Assembly: GCA_036559195.1 (NCBI GenBank)
Contig: DATBTN010000073.1
Coordinates: 1 to 64,000 of the forward strand
Source: Candidatus Baltobacteraceae bacterium
Lineage (GTDB): Bacteria; Vulcanimicrobiota; Vulcanimicrobiia; Vulcanimicrobiales; Vulcanimicrobiaceae
Length of the DNA stretch: 64,000 nucleotides
Reading direction: 5' to 3'
Shown piece after piece: positions 26,696-34,255 of this stretch. The notes under the pieces were generated by a model. That model ran no database searches. It saw only the letters and a program-made list of their open reading frames with translations, and was not told where the DNA came from. Within the stretch, counting starts at the first letter, position 1, and each line of letters begins with the position of its first letter. The translations under genes were made by a program, and so were the position numbers.

Positions 26696-27313
26696 CTAGA
26701 GCTTCGCTTCGGCCTTGGTGCGCGCGCGCACGATGAAGAACGCGGCGATGCCGACGACGACGGCCAGCGCGAGCACGATGAGTCCGAACTTGTGGATGAT
26801 CGGAACGATCTGATCGATGTGATTGCCGAGCGAGTTGCCCAAGAGCACCAAGCCGCCGCAGAAGATCAGCGAGCCGAAGAACGTCCACAGATAGAACGGC
26901 ACCAGCGGCATTTCCGCAATGCCGGCCGGAAAGCCGACGATGCCGCGCAACACGGGCACGAACCGGCAAATAAAGATCGCGAAGCTGCCGAAACGCGCGA
27001 AGAACGCTTCAACCCGCAGCAGCTCGGCCTCGTGGAAGCGCACGTATTTGCCGTACCGCTCGATAACCGGACGGCCTCCGTAGAAGCCGATCGCGTACGC
27101 GATACTTTGGCCCGCCAATTCGCCGAGGACGGCCGCCGCAACCGCGATCCACAGGCTCGGCAGATGACCGGTGGCAACCAAGGCCCCGGCCGCCGGGACG
27201 ATGACCTCGGCCCCGACCGGCGCACCGATGTTCCCAAGCATGAGCGCGACGAAAAGACCGATATAGCCGACGTGCTCGACGAGGTTCAGCGCGATGGTGG
27301 TGAGGTGCTGCAC
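26696..27313 (-). CDS. DedA/SNARE-associated family membrane protein
   Basis: 205 residues with five to six hydrophobic segments. DedA signatures are present: GNIGAPVGAEVIVPAAGALV near the N-terminus, then GFYGGRPVIERYGKYV, FFARFGSFAIFICRFVPVLRG, and PAGIAEMPLVPFYLWTFFGS. These proteins take part in membrane homeostasis, and some act as undecaprenyl-phosphate or phospholipid flippases. The RFxPxxR-like motif (CRFVPVLRG) is intact. GTG start at 27311-27313, eight bases after the Clp-N-like gene ends on the same strand. Confidence 0.9.
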   Translation of the reverse strand: MQHLTTIALNLVEHVGYIGLFVALMLGNIGAPVGAEVIVPAAGALVATGHLPSLWIAVAAAVLGELAGQSIAYAIGFYGGRPVIERYGKYVRFHEAELLRVEAFFARFGSFAIFICRFVPVLRGIVGFPAGIAEMPLVPFYLWTFFGSLIFCGGLVLLGNSLGNHIDQIVPIIHKFGLIVLALAVVVGIAAFFIVRARTKAEAKL

Positions 27314-27321
27314 GGGATTCC

Positions 27322-27729
27322 TTACTCGGAGGCCGCGGCGGTATTTCGCCCCGACTTGGCGCGGCGGAGTATCTCGGAAGCCAAGCTTCCGCCTTCTTGG
27401 CGCATGGCCTCAAACAGATCGGCCGGCTCGACGTCGCGATCCGCCGCCCGCTCTTCGGCCAGCGCGACGATCTTGCGCACGCGCGGCGTGACCAGGATGC
27501 CTTCCCACGTTCGGTCTTCGCCGGTTCCGAGCGCGCGACGAACCTCCGAGTGCGCCTCGGCGATCTCGATTCGGTCCAAACGCAAGCGTTCGATCACGGC
27601 GGCGTCGTGCTCTTCGAGCAACGCGAGCAGCAAATGTTCGGCGCCTACGTAATAGTGATTGTGGTTGCGGCACTCTTGCTCGGCGGCCCGCAGCACGCGC
27701 CGAGAAGCGGCACTAAATCGAGAAAACAA
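27322..27729 (-). CDS. Clp N-terminal domain protein, stand-alone
   Basis: 135 residues. It begins with a double Clp-N repeat signature: FSRFSAASRRVLRAAEQEC and YYVGAEHLLLALLEE, then the second half LGTGEDRTWEGILVTPRVRKIVALAEERA. It lacks any AAA+ ATPase domain. Such stand-alone Clp-N/ClpS-like proteins may be adaptors for ClpC or may bind substrates. The start is not certain: I use TTG at 27727-27729 because homology begins there, whereas the open frame to 27789 adds 20 unrelated residues. It follows tRNA-Pro on the same strand. Confidence 0.75.
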   Translation of the reverse strand: MFSRFSAASRRVLRAAEQECRNHNHYYVGAEHLLLALLEEHDAAVIERLRLDRIEIAEAHSEVRRALGTGEDRTWEGILVTPRVRKIVALAEERAADRDVEPADLFEAMRQEGGSLASEILRRAKSGRNTAAASE

Positions 27730-27807
27730 TATATCCCGTGGTATGGGCCGGATGCCGGTGCTTGGTGGCAGCCCCAGGCATTGCAGCATGCTGCTTGGGG
27801 GTAAATA

Positions 27808-27993: not shown

Positions 27994-28668
27994 ATGAGAT
28001 ACCTCATCGTCGGGTGCGGCCGCGTCGGATCCACCCTCGCGAAGCTCCTCGATGCCGACAATCACGAAGTTACCGTCATCGACGAAAACCCCTCCGCGTT
28101 TCGCCGCCTCGGGCCCGGTTTTAAAGGGCACGTGGTCGTTGGAACGGGCATCGATTACGACGTGCTCGCGCGAGCCGGCGCCGAGCAGACCGACGGGTTC
28201 ATCGCCGTAACCAACGGCGACAATCGCAACGTGATGGCGGCCCTGATCGCGCAGCGCATGTTCGCCGTCAAGAAGATCGTTTGCCGCATTTACGATCCGC
28301 CCCGCGGGTTGATGTATCGCGATCTCGGTATCGACACGGTCTGTCCGACGACGATCGGCGCGAAGATGATTCGCGACATGCTGATGGAAGCGCCTTGGGA
28401 CACGCTGCAGTCCTTCGATTTCGGTAAGGTTACCTCGCTCACGGCCATCGTCGGCGCGTCGTACGCGGGTAAGCGCGTGAGCGATGTCGAGCAGCCCGGA
28501 CGCATCCGCATCGCCGCCATCCGCACCGGCAAGACCGTGCGCGTTGCCGCCAACGACACCGAACTCGCCGAAGGCGACGAGATCAATGCCATCGTCGCTC
28601 CCGAGGCGATCAGCGAGTTCGCTCAAACGTTCGGATCTGCCGCGCCCGCGGCGAAAGTCGGCGCGTAG
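27994..28668 (+). CDS. TrkA-N/TrkA-C potassium-uptake regulator, first copy
   Basis: 224 residues: one Rossmann NAD-binding RCK domain (YLIVGCGRVGSTLAKLL, with Asp/Glu end in TVIDEN) and one TrkA-C (RCK_C) domain at about 140-220 (VEQPGRIRIAAIRTGK). It gates K+ channels or Trk/Ktr transporters in response to NAD(H), ATP or cyclic di-AMP. A second, related gene begins one base after its stop, so the two single-domain RCK proteins may assemble as a heteromeric ring instead of the fused TrkA of E. coli. No trkH/ktrB gene is in the window. Confidence 0.9.
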   Translation: MRYLIVGCGRVGSTLAKLLDADNHEVTVIDENPSAFRRLGPGFKGHVVVGTGIDYDVLARAGAEQTDGFIAVTNGDNRNVMAALIAQRMFAVKKIVCRIYDPPRGLMYRDLGIDTVCPTTIGAKMIRDMLMEAPWDTLQSFDFGKVTSLTAIVGASYAGKRVSDVEQPGRIRIAAIRTGKTVRVAANDTELAEGDEINAIVAPEAISEFAQTFGSAAPAAKVGA

Positions 28669-28669
28669 G

Positions 28670-29374
28670 ATGTTCGTGCTCATCGTCGGCGGCGGAAAAG
28701 TCGGCTCCTATCTTACTCGCGCGTTACTGCAAGAGGGCCACGAGGTCGTCGTGGTCGAGAAGGAAGAGCGCAAAGCGAAAATGCTCGAAACGCTGCTCGA
28801 AACCAACGTGACGGTCGTCGGCGACGGCTGCGACCCCTTAATCCTCGAGGGCGCCGGCATCGGCCGCGCCGATGTCGTGGTCGCCGACACGGGCGACGAT
28901 GAAGACAATCTCGTCGTCTGCTTGATCGCCAAGAAAAAAACGAAAGCGCGCTGTATCGCGCGCGTCAACAATCCGGGCAACAAGTTGATCTTCGAATCCC
29001 TCGATTCCGAGGATCCGATCACGGTCATCTCTTCCACCGAGATCATTCTCGACGTTCTCAACGAACACGTGAGCGCCTCGAAAGGCACCAATCTCGAGAC
29101 GATGCACCTCTTTGGTAAAGGCCAGATGCAGATGGTCAAGGTCGGGGTCCCGGCCCGTTCTCCGGCCGACGGCAAGCGCGTGAGCGATCTCGACTTTCCG
29201 CGCAACAGCGTGCTGGTCGCCGTCGTACGCGACGAGGAAGACTTGGTAATTCCCACGAGCGACACGGAGCTGCACGTCGGCGACAAAGTGATCGCCATCG
29301 TACGCGACGGCGCGGCCGAACAATTGCGCGCGCTGCTCGCCGGAGGCGAGGCCTCTAACGGAGGCTCGCCGTAA
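28670..29374 (+). CDS. TrkA-N/TrkA-C potassium-uptake regulator, second copy
   Basis: 234 residues: RCK N domain (FVLIVGGGKVGSYLTRALL, acidic end VVVEKEE) and RCK_C domain (VPARSPADGKRVSDLDFP, about 155-225). It is paralogous to the preceding gene with similar length and layout. ATG at 28670 follows the first gene's stop at once. Its stop is TAA (29372-29374), which overlaps by three bases the likely non-standard GTA start of the next gene. The two TrkA proteins and the KdpD-sensor protein form a three-gene potassium-regulation cluster. Confidence 0.9.
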   Translation: MFVLIVGGGKVGSYLTRALLQEGHEVVVVEKEERKAKMLETLLETNVTVVGDGCDPLILEGAGIGRADVVVADTGDDEDNLVVCLIAKKKTKARCIARVNNPGNKLIFESLDSEDPITVISSTEIILDVLNEHVSASKGTNLETMHLFGKGQMQMVKVGVPARSPADGKRVSDLDFPRNSVLVAVVRDEEDLVIPTSDTELHVGDKVIAIVRDGAAEQLRALLAGGEASNGGSP

Positions 29375-31476
29375 ACCGCAACGAACGCAAACGCGCCGCC
29401 TCCACGACGACTCTTGAAGACTCGGGCACGCAGGCCCGGCTCCTCGTCTACATCGCCGCCGCATCCGGTGCGGGCAAGACGCGCCGCCTGCTCGACGACG
29501 CTCACCGTGCCCGCCTAGCGGGCAAGAACGTCGTCATCGGCTGGCTCGAGGTGAGAGGCCGCGCCGATCTGGAACGGCTCGCCGAAGATATTCCACGAGT
29601 GCCCCCGCACTTGGTAAAAGTCGGTACCGCGAGCGTTCCCGAATTCGATTTCGAGGCGGCGGTCGCCATGCACCCCGACGTCGTCTTGCTCGACGACCTC
29701 GCCCACGACAATAGCCCCGGCTCCCCGAACGCCAAACGCTGGCAGGACGCGCTTGCGTTACGCGAACGCGGCATCTCGGTCTTGAGCGCTTTCAATATCG
29801 CGCATCTCGAGACGGCCGCGCCGATCGCGCAAATCGTGACCGGATGTCCGGTTCGCGAGACGGTGCCGATCTCGTTTCTCAAGGCCGCCGAAGAGGTCAT
29901 CGCACTCGACGTCTCCCCGCAGCTGCTCCAGCGCCGACTGATCTCGCAAAAGGCCGTCAAGAGCGAAACCCTTCACGCACTGCGCGAACTTCTGCTGCGC
30001 ACGATCGACGATCTCACGATTCCGGCCATATCCGCCGACGCCGTCTCGACGGCGGCCGCGATCGTGCTGCCCGGCTTCAATCCGGTCCCGTTCATCCGCC
30101 GGACTGCCGCCATCGCATCGGCGCTCGATCTCGCGCTCGAAGTGCACACCGCGCCGAGCGTCTCCGTCGACGAGTTCGCGGCGCTCACGCACGGCGAGTA
30201 CGAATGCGAAGTCTTTCCCGGCGACGTGCAGGGAGCGATCGAGGATATCGACGACTTGCGAGCGTCGCTCGTTGCGGTTCCGATGAGCAAGTTCGCAAAA
30301 CAATTGGCCAATCGCAAAGCCGAACGCGATCTCTTTCTGGTTGGCACCGACCAAACGTTTCTCTCGCAGCCGCCGCTCTCGTCGCGTCTCTCCGGCGCGC
30401 TCGGCGACCGGCTGCGCATCGGCTACGGCAAACTTACGGTCTATCTCGGCGCGGTGGCCGGCTCCGGAAAAACGATGGCCATGCTCGATCGCGGCCATCA
30501 GTTGCTGAGCGAAGGCGTCGACGTCGTCGCCGGTTTCATCGAGACGCACGGGCGCGCGGAGACGCAGGCGCTCGTCGCCGGACTCGAAGTGGTGCCGCGC
30601 AAGCGCGTCGATGCCAACGGCGTGGCCCAGGAAGAGTTCGATCGCGACGCGCTCATCGCGCGCCATCCGAAGGTCGCGCTCATCGACGAGCTGGCCCACA
30701 CCAACGCCCCGGCATCGGCCGCGCGGAAGCGATACGAGGACGTGCTCGCCGTGCTGCGCGCCGGAATCGACGTCGTCACGACGCTCAATATCGCGCACCT
30801 CGAGGCGCTCGGCGACGCCATCTTTCGCTTGACCGGAACGACCGTTCGTCAGACGCTGCCCGATGGAATTCTCGCGCTAGCCGACGAGGTCATTTTAATC
30901 GACGTCACGCCCGAAGCGCTGCGCGAACGCTTGCGCGAAGGGAAGATCTTTCCGCCCGAACGCGTGGAGACGGCGCTTGGAACCTTCTTCCGCACCGATA
31001 ACCTTCGGGCGCTTCGCGAACTCGCCGTACGCGAAGCGATGCAAGCCAAAGATCGCGAGCGGGTCTGCGCCCCGTTCGAGCGGCTGCTGCTCACGATCGC
31101 GCCCCGCGAGAGCGATATCGCGCTGGTCACGCGCTGCTCGAAGATTGCCGGACGCCTGAGCATCGATTTTGCCGTCACCCACGTGGCGGCAGCTAACGAG
31201 CATCCCGACGCGGCGATGCTGGCAACGCTGGAGCAAGCCGTCAAAGCGGCCGGCGGCAAATGGATCTACGATCGCAGCGCCGATCCGCCCAAACGGGTGA
31301 TCGAAATGGCTCGCGCGGTCCTCGAAACCACCGTCGTCGTCGGCGGCACGTTGCGCAACCCGCGCTGGCCGCAGCCCAACGCCTACGCGCGCCGTTTGAT
31401 CGATGCCGGGGCGCGCGAACTCATCATCCTCGCCCGCCGCCACGAGGGAACGCAGGAACTCACCGGTTCCGACTAA
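29371..31476 (+). CDS. Tandem KdpD sensor-domain protein with USP-like end and no histidine kinase
   Basis: About 701 residues. Two KdpD N-terminal P-loop modules occur in tandem: ASGAGKT (about 31-37), LDDLAH and FNIAHLETAAP, then AGSGKT (about 363-368), IDELAHTNAP and LNIAHLEALG. A USP-like domain (LLLTIAPRESDIALVTRCSK) follows each logical end only once, at about 570-701. There is no membrane segment, GAF domain or HisKA/HATPase. In KdpD this region senses K+ and, through USP, binds c-di-AMP in some phyla. The first Walker A lies upstream of the first standard start (GTG 29551), so the true start is earlier: GGAGG at 29360-29364 lies six bases before GTA at 29371. The gene follows two TrkA genes. 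Confidence 0.78.
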   Translation, partial: VNRNERKRAASTTTLEDSGTQARLLVYIAAASGAGKTRRLLDDAHRARLAGKNVVIGWLEVRGRADLERLAEDIPRVPPHLVKVGTASVPEFDFEAAVAMHPDVVLLDDLAHDNSPGSPNAKRWQDALALRERGISVLSAFNIAHLETAAPIAQIVTGCPVRETVPISFLKAAEEVIALDVSPQLLQRRLISQKAVKSETLHALRELLLRTIDDLTIPAISADAVSTAAAIVLPGFNPVPFIRRTAAIASALDLALEVHTAPSVSVDEFAALTHGEYECEVFPGDVQGAIEDIDDLRASLVAVPMSKFAKQLANRKAERDLFLVGTDQTFLSQPPLSSRLSGALGDRLRIGYGKLTVYLGAVAGSGKTMAMLDRGHQLLSEGVDVVAGFIETHGRAETQALVAGLEVVPRKRVDANGVAQEEFDRDALIARHPKVALIDELAHTNAPASAARKRYEDVLAVLRAGIDVVTTLNIAHLEALGDAIFRLTGTTVRQTLPDGILALADEVILIDVTPEALRERLREGKIFPPERVETALGTFFRTDNLRALRELAVREAMQAKDRERVCAPFERLLLTIAPRESDIALVTRCSKIAGRLSIDFAVTHVAAANEHPDAAMLATLEQAVKAAGGKWIYDRSADPPKRVIEMARAVLETTVVVGGTLRNPRWPQPNAYARRLIDAGARELIILARRHEGTQELTGSD

Positions 31477-32573
31477 GCGTCGAGCCCCAATTCGCGGACG
31501 CGCGGTTCGATCGTAAACGAACTGACCAGCACGGTTACCAGCACCACCGCAAACGTCGCATCGATAATGATGGGCCGCTGCTCGATCGCGAGCGGAGTCG
31601 CGAGCGCGAGCGCGAGCGAGAGCGCGCCGCGTACGCCCGCCAATCGCACGACGGTTTTCCAGCGAAGATCCAACCGCGGACGAACCAGCGCCAATCCGCC
31701 GTACGCCAGCAGGATGCGCGCCGCGGCGACGGCGAGCAGCGTGAGCAGAATCACGAGCGGAGCGTGCAGCAGGCGGGTGACGTCGAGGGCGGCACCGACC
31801 AGAAAAAAGAGCACCGCGTTGGCGGCGGCGGCGGCGATCGACCAGGCGCGCTCGACGCCGTCGGCGCGCCGCACGACGTCGTGCCGCGTCTCCAGCGCGC
31901 GCAAAACGATACCCAGCGACACGACCGCGAAAATGCCGGACCACTGCAAGCGATCCGCCGCAAAGTACGCTCCGTACGCCGCTACAAACGTCAAACCGGT
32001 CTGTGCGACCGCGCCGATTCCGCGGCGCAGAATCAGCGAGGTCACGAAGGCGGCAACCACTCCCAGCCCGATCCCGAACGCGGTTCCTAGCACGGCACCG
32101 GCGGCGATTTGGACGGTGCCGGCAGCAGTCGCTCCAATCGCAAACGTCATTAAGATGACTCGATACACGACGACGGCGACCGCATCGTTGAGCAGCGCTT
32201 CGCTCTCGACGATCGTGGCGAGCGTCTTTGGAACGACCAACTGGCGAAAGATCGCCACCACGGCGACCGGATCGGTCGCGCTAAGCACCGCGCCGAGCAA
32301 AAGTGCGACGCGCCACGGCAGGGCGCCGGCAACGTGCGTTGCCGCGCCGACGATCGCGGCCGTTACGAGCACGCCCGGAAACGCGAGCAACACGATCGGA
32401 CGCCACACCTGACGCATGACCCGCAAGTCGAGCTGCCAGGCCGCTTCGAAAATCAGCGCCGGCAAAAACACATAGAGCGTCACCGTGCCGAAGAGGCCCG
32501 TCAGCCGGCCGGGAAAAGCGACGCCCACACCGATGCCCGCGATCAGAAGCACCGCAATCTGCCAGAGCTTCAC
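31473..32573 (-). CDS. CPA1-type Na+(K+)/H+ antiporter
   Basis: 366 residues, about 11-12 membrane helices. The transport core is clear: SATDPVAVVAIF and ESEALLNDAVAVVVY are the CPA1 motifs with the Asp pair used for ion exchange; LAGVRGALSLALALATPL is the usual late segment. It exchanges H+ for Na+ or K+ and helps pH and salt homeostasis. It has no long cytoplasmic tail. It converges with the tandem KdpD-sensor gene (four-base overlap), and so sits next to potassium-sensing genes, which suggests ion-balance functions together. GTG start at 32571-32573, 27 bases after the radical SAM gene's end. Confidence 0.88.
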   Translation of the reverse strand: MKLWQIAVLLIAGIGVGVAFPGRLTGLFGTVTLYVFLPALIFEAAWQLDLRVMRQVWRPIVLLAFPGVLVTAAIVGAATHVAGALPWRVALLLGAVLSATDPVAVVAIFRQLVVPKTLATIVESEALLNDAVAVVVYRVILMTFAIGATAAGTVQIAAGAVLGTAFGIGLGVVAAFVTSLILRRGIGAVAQTGLTFVAAYGAYFAADRLQWSGIFAVVSLGIVLRALETRHDVVRRADGVERAWSIAAAAANAVLFFLVGAALDVTRLLHAPLVILLTLLAVAAARILLAYGGLALVRPRLDLRWKTVVRLAGVRGALSLALALATPLAIEQRPIIIDATFAVVLVTVLVSSFTIEPRVRELGLDA

Positions 32574-32600: not shown

Positions 32601-33809
32601 CTAGTGCGTGTGTGTGAAGTTGCCGACGCGCACGCCGCGTTCGCGAATGGCGGCGATCGCGCGCTGCATCCCGAGCGGGTTGCTAGGGCGGCCCACCGCG
32701 GCGAAATACCACTCGGGGTCGATATTGAGCGTGCGCGTCTGGATCATGGTCACGCGCGCGCCGTCGAGGAACGCGCCCATCGCCGCCAATTCGGCCTCGT
32801 CGTCGGTAACGCCGGGATGCGTAAGCAGGTTGAGCGAGACGCGTAGACCCGCGTCGACCGCCAGCCGGATCGAATCGAAGACGTTTTCGAGCGTATATCC
32901 AAGCGGGCGATAATACGCCGCATAGACGTCCGGGCGAAACGAATTGAGGCTCACGCGAACGGCCTGGAGTCCGGCATCGATACAGCGACGCAATTCGCCC
33001 GTCATGCTGCCGTTCGTGTTGAGGTTGATCGTGCCGTTCGCGCGGCGAGCGCGAATCAACTCGATCGCGCGCGCGATCGTCACGCCGCGCAGCAGTGGCT
33101 CGCCTTCGCAACCTTGCCCGAACGAAACGATACCTTCCGGCACGCGTTCGAGATGATAGATTCCGATGCGCGACAGTTCTTGGGCGTTGGTCTCGAAGGC
33201 GATTCGCGTTTGCGGCGAAGGCAGGTGTGCCTCGGGAGCGAGTTCGGAGATGCAGCCGACGCAGCGCGCGTTACACTTCGGCGAGACCGGCAACGCGGCT
33301 TCGCCGCGCGCGAGAAACACGTTTTGCGCCGTGAAACAGCCGTACTCGCGCGAGCAGAGCGCGACTTGCTCGAGCACGCGATTGTGCGGATCGGTCGCGA
33401 GACGGCGCTCGAGAATGCCTTCGAGTTCGCCCGACTCGAAATAGCGCGGCTGCCAGTCTTCGCCCTCGTCGGTACGCATCGCCGCGACGTGCAGCGCGTC
33501 GTCGACGACGCACGCGAAGGTGTATCCGAAGAGCGGCAGCGTCGGCGCGTCTTCTTCTTTCACGTAGGCCGGGACGAGTAGCCGCGTGTAGCCCGCGGGC
33601 AAGATCGCCGCCAAGGCGTAGCGTCGTTTGGTACTTCCGCGCGCGAGCATCGGACGGCGGCCCGGCAAGATCGTTTCCACCGTGCCCGGCGGAGCGGGAA
33701 TCAATTCGCCCGGCTCGACTCGACGAATCAGGCCGCCGTCGGCGAGCGGTTCGCGCGATTCGTCGTAATAGATGCGCCCCTCGCGGTCGCAATACGCCAG
33801 TCCGATCAC
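32601..33809 (-). CDS. Radical SAM protein, AnSME/pyruvate-formate-activator like but unassigned
   Basis: 402 residues. The CX3CX2C cluster motif is CNARCVGC (about residues 180-190), in SPKCNARCVGCISEL. The first 170 residues are not a known domain and include an eight-stranded-like start (GLAYCDREGRIYYDES). Other radical SAM features include a GGG-like loop replaced by GQGCEGEPLL, and NLNTNGSM for the SAM-binding strand. There is no extra SPASM cluster. The substrate is unknown. The GTG at 33807-33809 overlaps the GNAT gene's TGA stop (GTGA). It ends a long minus-strand operon of repair, tRNA-modification and lysine-pathway genes. Confidence 0.82.
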   Translation of the reverse strand: MIGLAYCDREGRIYYDESREPLADGGLIRRVEPGELIPAPPGTVETILPGRRPMLARGSTKRRYALAAILPAGYTRLLVPAYVKEEDAPTLPLFGYTFACVVDDALHVAAMRTDEGEDWQPRYFESGELEGILERRLATDPHNRVLEQVALCSREYGCFTAQNVFLARGEAALPVSPKCNARCVGCISELAPEAHLPSPQTRIAFETNAQELSRIGIYHLERVPEGIVSFGQGCEGEPLLRGVTIARAIELIRARRANGTINLNTNGSMTGELRRCIDAGLQAVRVSLNSFRPDVYAAYYRPLGYTLENVFDSIRLAVDAGLRVSLNLLTHPGVTDDEAELAAMGAFLDGARVTMIQTRTLNIDPEWYFAAVGRPSNPLGMQRAIAAIRERGVRVGNFTHTH

Positions 33810-34255
33810 AGCGATTTTGCAAACAGGTGCTGCGTTTTGAGAACCGCATACCCGTGGCGCCGATAGAACTCGTGGGCGCGCTCGCGAACCACGTTGGCGC
33901 GCAGCCGCACGGCGGTACACTCGCGGGCTCGCGCCCACGCTTCGACCCGCTGCAGTAACGCCTCGCCGACGCGCACGCCGCGGTACTCATCCTCGACGAC
34001 GAGCCCATCGACGACGGCATGCTTCGCGGCGGTCAGCGGCGCGCTCGCATGTGCGCCGATCCACCCGACCACCCCCGCGCGCGGGACGACGGCGACGAAC
34101 AGTTCGCGCTCGTTCGTGCGCGCCGCGAGAAAGGTCTCGACGTGCGCGATCGTCACGTCGTACCCCAGTTGCAGAGCGAGCGCGGCGATGCGCCGAGCAT
34201 CGGATGCAAGCGCCTCGCGGACGTTGACCTCGAGCCGCTCAAACGAGGACTGCAT
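33806..34255 (-). CDS. GNAT-family N-acetyltransferase
   Basis: 149 residues. The GNAT fold is shown by the acetyl-CoA loop in VVEDEYRGVRVGEALLQRVE (Q/RxxGxG/A as RGVRVG) and the C-terminal strand YRRHGYAVLKTQHLF. It transfers an acetyl group to an unknown amine. It overlaps dapF by 17 bases at its start and the radical SAM gene by four bases at its end, so it is co-translated in the operon. An N-terminal peptide or small-molecule role cannot be told apart from sequence. Confidence 0.85.
   Translation of the reverse strand: MQSSFERLEVNVREALASDARRIAALALQLGYDVTIAHVETFLAARTNERELFVAVVPRAGVVGWIGAHASAPLTAAKHAVVDGLVVEDEYRGVRVGEALLQRVEAWARARECTAVRLRANVVRERAHEFYRRHGYAVLKTQHLFAKSL

What the first reader, a model, noticed from the sequence alone, without database searches (positions are those of the whole stretch)
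29356..31476. Tandem KdpD sensor modules without a kinase, in a potassium-regulation cluster
Seen: two KdpD-type P-loop modules in one protein (ASGAGKT about residue 31; AGSGKT about 363), each with its DELAH/DDLAH-like Walker B and NIAHLE motifs, then one USP-like domain; no membrane helices, no HisKA. It follows two single-RCK TrkA genes and faces a CPA1 antiporter. Known: in KdpD this module senses K+ and its USP domain can bind c-di-AMP; stand-alone short KdpD forms are known. Inference: a soluble duplicated sensor may report K+ or c-di-AMP to the TrkA ring or to a transporter instead of to KdpE.
Basis: partly seen in the sequence, partly recalled or inferred. Interest (0 to 1): 0.62.

Follow-up and report, generated by a model that had tools for sequence, protein, structure and literature searches.

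The report
Orphan duplicated KdpD potassium-pump regulator
The gene encodes a soluble protein made of two fused copies of the regulatory half of the potassium sensor KdpD; in this bacterial class it accompanies the Kdp potassium pump and probably switches it off by serine phosphorylation, but the copy in this window has been left behind without its pump and appears to be decaying.

Summary
Window 29371-31476 (+) encodes two KdpD P-loop modules with no histidine kinase and no clear membrane helices. Three corrections: each module has its own USP-like domain (two, not one); no ATG/GTG/TTG precedes the first P-loop (the likely start is a GTA where relatives have GTG); and the genome has a second, better-conserved copy beside kdpABC.

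Across 83 related Eremiobacterota-class genomes, KdpA and KdpD occur as both 61, KdpA only 0, KdpD only 5, neither 17. The tandem gene normally lies between kdpCBA and a TM/GAF histidine kinase plus NarL-type regulator. Both modules invariantly keep the residues shown in E. coli KdpD to form an atypical serine kinase for KdpB Ser162, and KdpB keeps TGES wherever readable. So the family is most likely a duplicated, kinase-less KdpD that brakes the Kdp pump.

The TrkA-reporter idea is not supported: the TrkA pair is universal with or without the tandem gene, and TrkH is absent from all genomes tested. The window copy is an orphan from which regulator, kinase and pump genes were lost on both sides. 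Orphans arose about seven times and most show relaxed constraint. This is a new variant of a known kind.

The parts
29371..31476 (+). tandem KdpD gene, (KdpD-USP)x2, no kinase; likely original start at GTA 29371
29360..29364 (+). GGAGG, Shine-Dalgarno-like, 6 nt before GTA 29371
29371..29373 (+). GTA at the position where relatives have a GTG start; overlaps the TrkA2 stop TAA 29372-29374
29431..29979 (+). KdpD (PF02702) module 1
29467..29481 (+). Walker A of module 1 (GAGKT)
29692..29697 (+). Walker B Asp-Asp of module 1; the second residue (E. coli E110) is Glu in all 58 Kdp-bearing copies
30022..30375 (+). USP-like domain 1
30427..31038 (+). KdpD (PF02702) module 2, catalytic motifs intact
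31081..31431 (+). USP-like domain 2
27994..28668 (+). TrkA1, single RCK (conserved neighbour, not shown to be a partner)
28670..29374 (+). TrkA2, single RCK (conserved neighbour)
31473..32573 (-). CPA1-type Na+/H+ antiporter, convergent (conserved flank)
32601..33938 (-). radical SAM protein (conserved flank)
26696..27313 (-). VTT/DedA-type protein (conserved flank)
27322..27789 (-). Clp-N domain protein (conserved flank)

Best explanation
The family is a duplicated short KdpD, (KdpD P-loop domain + USP) x2, without a histidine kinase. Its ordinary job is to be the soluble post-translational brake on the KdpABC pump: when K+ is sufficient, an ATP-bound P-loop module phosphorylates the serine of the TGES loop of KdpB, while transcription is handled by a separate TM/GAF histidine kinase with a NarL-type regulator encoded beside it. 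The USP domains are the likely input sites (c-di-AMP or another nucleotide). The window copy is an orphan of that family. At its locus the RR-HK pair and kdpCBA were lost on both sides of it, leaving TrkA1-TrkA2-tandem facing CPA1. It probably has reduced expression (GTA in place of GTG) and a weakened module 1, while module 2 could still act on the KdpB encoded elsewhere in the genome. Shown here by sequence: architecture, linkage, co-occurrence, motif conservation, repeated orphaning, relaxed constraint. Inferred: kinase activity, substrate, input signal, expression level.
For: Linkage: in most intact loci the order is RR-HK (opposite strand), tandem, kdpCBA. Co-occurrence in 83 genomes at least 85% complete: both 61, KdpA only 0, KdpD only 5, neither 17 (Fisher p 1e-13, genomes not independent). 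The 58 Kdp-bearing copies (the genome's own C65 copy among them) keep the E. coli ASK residues in both modules: GKT 57/57 and 58/58, D109-E110 58/58 and 58/58, R190 58/58 and 58/58. KdpB keeps TGES wherever that region was covered. E. coli KdpD NTD phosphorylates KdpB S162 through these residues, and a short KdpD/Usp from D. geothermalis does so under c-di-AMP control; split ASK plus TM/GAF/DHpCA kinases are known (PMC11018627). The neighbouring HK has N-terminal hydrophobic helices, GAF (L082), HisKA and HATPase_c. Folds: 2r8r (KdpD N-term) TM 0.95 and 7ji4 (KdpD USP) TM 0.82. Orphan decay: departures at otherwise invariant columns, window 8/108, G018 14, G017 12, against a Kdp-bearing median of about 0.5% (Mann-Whitney p 4e-5); seven independent Kdp losses on the tree; faster evolution than the sister in 5 of 7.
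Against: No biochemistry. The window copy is still under purifying constraint (codon-position differences 0.24/0.15/0.49 against G011), so 'decaying' may be too strong. Two orphans (G036, G042) evolve no faster than their sisters, and the window's own excess is modest (Tajima chi-square 3.0 or 5.4 by outgroup). In five orphan loci the tandem gene lay between the lost genes, so keeping it took two flanking losses each time, which could mean it was selected for. One Kdp-bearing copy (G022) is as divergent as the worst orphan. No tandem protein has the published c-di-AMP motif.
Confidence: 0.6

Rival explanations
1. The orphan tandem gene has been re-used: after the pump and two-component genes were lost it joined the TrkA1-TrkA2 operon and now serves a Kdp-independent K+ regulatory role, such as reporting a nucleotide or K+ signal to TrkA or the CPA1 antiporter.
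For: Five genera (window, G071, G036, G032, G018) show the tandem gene directly downstream of TrkA2 in the same orientation after loss of genes on both sides. Distances are short (overlap in the window, 5 nt to ATG in G032). All are open frames and codon-position differences against the sister still point to constraint.
Against: TrkA pairs occur in 22/22 genomes, including 15 without the tandem gene. No TrkH or Ion_trans_2 channel. Orphans lose, rather than gain, shared conserved residues, and mostly different ones. The window copy lacks a normal start codon.
Confidence: 0.17
2. The window copy is a plain pseudogene: the start codon is lost, module 1 is disabled, and it is not translated.
For: GTA in place of GTG; E110 to D in module 1; next in-frame start after the first P-loop; the genome has another tandem gene with a normal start.
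Against: 701 codons remain open, third-position excess persists, module 2 motifs are intact, and the ribosome site GGAGG is kept at proper spacing. GTA could also be a base error in a metagenome assembly.
Confidence: 0.18
3. The duplicated protein is a pure sensor for the adjacent histidine kinase (a split KdpD) rather than a serine kinase.
For: HK and tandem gene are divergent neighbours in most intact loci.
Against: Invariant Walker B Glu and most of the serine-kinase residue set in both modules; literature shows ASK activity in short KdpD without any kinase (PMC11018627).
Confidence: 0.1

Closest known systems
Short KdpD/Usp serine kinase (Deinococcus geothermalis DgKdpD, PMC11018627); NCBIfam NF038185 KdpD-like non-kinase potassium sensor
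   Same: KdpD P-loop domain followed by USP, soluble, no histidine kinase, ASK residues conserved, linked to the Kdp pump
   Different: The whole unit is duplicated in one chain. Module 1 has A/S for the first P-loop Gly and R/H for the adenine-stacking Trp. No match to the Firmicutes c-di-AMP motif. Partner regulator is NarL-type. The orphan copy has no kdp genes beside it.
Full-length KdpD (E. coli, PRK10490)
   Same: The N-terminal KdpD domain and USP correspond to the first ~370 residues
   Different: No DUF4118 membrane helices, GAF, HisKA or HATPase_c in the protein; the unit is duplicated
Split ASK + TM/GAF/DHpCA kinase pairs described in Acidobacteriota and Chloroflexota (PMC11018627)
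   Same: Kinase and P-loop/USP parts on separate chains in one kdp locus
   Different: ASK chain duplicated here; the regulator is NarL/LuxR-type, not KdpE (OmpR-type)

Membership tests
KdpD sensor domain (PF02702) | profile match over the curated cut-off | tested here: met
   two domains, 444.8 bits against 26.1
KdpD-type atypical serine kinase (ASK) | Walker A GKT, Walker B Asp-Glu, Arg190 equivalents | tested here: met
   window module 2 keeps all; module 1 has Asp in place of E110; family-wide invariant in Kdp-bearing copies
KdpD-type atypical serine kinase (ASK) | aromatic adenine-stacking residue (E. coli W39) | tested here: not met
   window: Arg in module 1, Met in module 2; family module 2 is mostly Tyr/Phe, module 1 Arg/His. 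So the window copy is described as ASK-like, not filed as a proven ASK
KdpD-type atypical serine kinase (ASK) | phosphorylates KdpB Ser in TGES | not testable with these tools
   substrate loop TGES is present in readable KdpBs; activity not tested
KdpD histidine kinase | HisKA and HATPase_c domains in the same protein | tested here: not met
   absent
NCBIfam NF038185 KdpD-like non-kinase sensor | score over the curated cut-off of 550 | tested here: not met
   431.6 bits, two stretches
c-di-AMP-binding KdpD-USP of Firmicutes | (A/G/C)XSXSX2N(Y/F) motif (PMC8214093) | tested here: not met
   0 of 65 tandem proteins; D. geothermalis KdpD, which responds to c-di-AMP, was not compared
Trk/Ktr K+ uptake system component | co-occurrence with a TrkH/KtrB channel | tested here: not met
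   0 of 14 genomes

The most novel reading that the evidence does not exclude
One chain carries two P-loop serine-kinase sites, both catalytically conserved but with different adenine pockets: a covalent pseudo-dimer or two-substrate kinase (for example KdpB plus a second K+ transporter or the neighbouring kinase). In several lineages that lost the pump, the protein has been taken over by the TrkA operon.
Probability: 0.2. Interest if true: 0.65.

Novelty: new variant of a known kind. Interest (0 to 1): 0.45.

Why it matters
KdpD's N-terminal domain was recognised as a serine kinase only in 2024, and how kinase-less KdpD forms are controlled is still open. A class in which that domain is duplicated, uncoupled from the histidine kinase, never missing where the pump is present, and repeatedly orphaned gives a natural test: motif decay after pump loss points to KdpB as the constraint on the module, and the orphans ask whether the module has any other client.

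Tried and rejected
TrkA-ring reporter as the family function: rejected because the TrkA pair is universal and independent of the tandem gene and TrkH is absent. Truncated full-length KdpD: rejected; all KdpD genes found in the class are kinase-less tandems, apart from ones cut by contig ends or split. Recent duplication of the gene inside this genome: rejected; the two copies are 57% identical and fall in different supported clades. Mis-binned C65 contig: its tetranucleotide distance lies within the range of this genome's own contigs and its GC is only slightly low, so not favoured, though not excluded. Which copy is ancestral: unresolved; the TrkA tree groups this genome with G032/G026 while the window tandem groups with G011. 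Ion_trans_2 in this genome: no match. Tandem form outside the phylum: the non-Eremiobacterota KdpD loci carry single modules, and the one plasmid record covering over 80% of the query has a single-module-sized match; this is a limited survey. Published description of tandem KdpD: no paper found in the held library; supplements of PMC11018627 could not be read.

Full report
Observation. The window is G000:C73, part of a 2.48-Mb, 97% complete genome. A family member (G021) has a contig of the same length and gene order as JAFAXE010000185.1, titled Candidatus Eremiobacterota, so the window is placed in that phylum. The frame 29359-31476 contains two KdpD domains and no kinase. There is no ATG, GTG or TTG before the first P-loop; GTA 29371 sits 6 nt after GGAGG and overlaps the TrkA2 stop, where relatives begin with GTG-N-D-R. 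AlphaFold with 49 relatives gives pLDDT 88 (pTM 0.66, so relative domain placement is uncertain) and shows P-loop, USP-like, P-loop, USP-like. The P-loop module matches the KdpD N-terminal structure 2r8r and the full model matches KdpD-USP 7ji4. The middle domain modelled alone has USP structures as its top 14 hits (E-values only around 0.002).

A second copy. The same genome has a second tandem gene on C65, convergent with kdpA-kdpB-kdpC-HK-RR. Among 83 class genomes this is the only one with two tandem genes. The copies are 57% identical and fall in different supported clades. C65 resembles the other contigs of the genome in tetranucleotide use, so mis-binning is not favoured.

Family context. 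In relatives carrying Kdp, a common order is TrkA1-TrkA2, RR-HK (opposite strand), tandem, kdpCBA, BBP2 porin, CPA1, radical SAM; in other genera the TrkA part lies elsewhere but RR-HK, tandem and kdp genes stay together. The HK carries N-terminal hydrophobic helices, GAF, HisKA and HATPase_c; the RR is NarL/LuxR type. KdpA and KdpD counts in 83 genomes at least 85% complete: both 61, KdpA only 0, KdpD only 5 (G071, G036, G017, G018, G042), neither 17 (Fisher, with the caution that genomes are related). Modules 1 and 2 form two separate, fully supported groups, consistent with one duplication. In other classes of the phylum KdpD is single: a KdpD-USP of 397 aa (G055) and a KdpD-DUF4118-GAF protein without kinase (G058).

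Mechanism. Silberberg et al. 2024 (PMC11018627) showed that the KdpD N-terminal domain of E. coli is an atypical serine kinase that phosphorylates KdpB S162 and needs Walker A, D109, E110 and W39/R190; that short KdpD/Usp forms exist; and that D. geothermalis KdpD is stimulated by c-di-AMP. Mapping on E. coli KdpD, the 58 Kdp-bearing tandem proteins keep GKT, D109, E110 and R190 in both modules without exception. Module 2 also keeps the first P-loop glycine (58/58) and an aromatic at W39 (54/58). Module 1 mostly has Ala or Ser at the first glycine and Arg or His at W39, so both look catalytic but with different nucleotide pockets. KdpB has TGES in every locus where that part was covered. I therefore infer a soluble brake on the pump. 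The input is probably through USP; a diadenylate cyclase is present in 9 of 10 genomes, but the Firmicutes c-di-AMP motif is absent (PMC8214093).

The window copy. Here, and in G071, G036, G032 and G018, the tandem gene lies directly after TrkA2 and both RR-HK and kdpCBA are gone from the locus (G018's contig ends in TrkA2). The tree needs seven separate changes for the seven orphan or Kdp-less copies. At columns almost invariant among Kdp-bearing copies, orphans depart more often (window 8 of 108; p 4e-5), including catalytic positions (window E110D in module 1, G018 Walker A Lys to Thr in module 2). Five of seven have more unique changes than their sisters, G018 and G017 most clearly. G042 keeps only fragments of an RR beside its tandem gene, as expected of stepwise loss. 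The pump was never found without the tandem gene, while the tandem gene is found without the pump: the asymmetry expected of a brake. Against simple decay: in the sisters of the five orphans the tandem gene lies between the lost genes, so it survived two flanking losses each time, and codon-position differences still show constraint. A secondary role therefore cannot be excluded.

TrkA. The TrkA pair is present in all 22 genomes tested, with or without the tandem gene, and TrkH/KtrB in none of 14. TrkA adjacency is therefore a conserved neighbourhood, not evidence of partnership.

Verdict. A real, well-conserved new architecture (duplicated KdpD-USP serine-kinase candidate) of a known kind, represented in the window by an orphan, probably weakened copy.

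Noticed in passing
27994-29374: Pair of single-RCK TrkA proteins universal in the class (22/22) although TrkH/KtrB (0/14) is absent, and Ion_trans_2 channels are absent from this genome; K+ uptake candidates here are two Kup proteins (G000:C37) and Kdp. The membrane partner of this RCK pair is unknown.
   Followed up: partly
L005:971-2125: BBP2/OmpL-like beta-barrel porin gene next to kdpA in many loci, and next to the orphan tandem gene in G032 and G018; possibly an outer-membrane component for K+ uptake.
   Followed up: partly
L081:6155-7825, L143:12718-14454: Second, divergent KdpA copies near the kdp locus in several genomes (59% and 55% identical), also seen as second KdpA hits.
   Followed up: no
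L060:6777 and 9785: Actinobacterial contig with two neighbouring KdpD-domain ORFs (771 and 460 aa), one of them strongly diverged.
   Followed up: no
L077 (G042): No diadenylate cyclase and no KdpA found in a 96% complete genome that keeps a tandem gene and fragments of a regulator gene.
   Followed up: no
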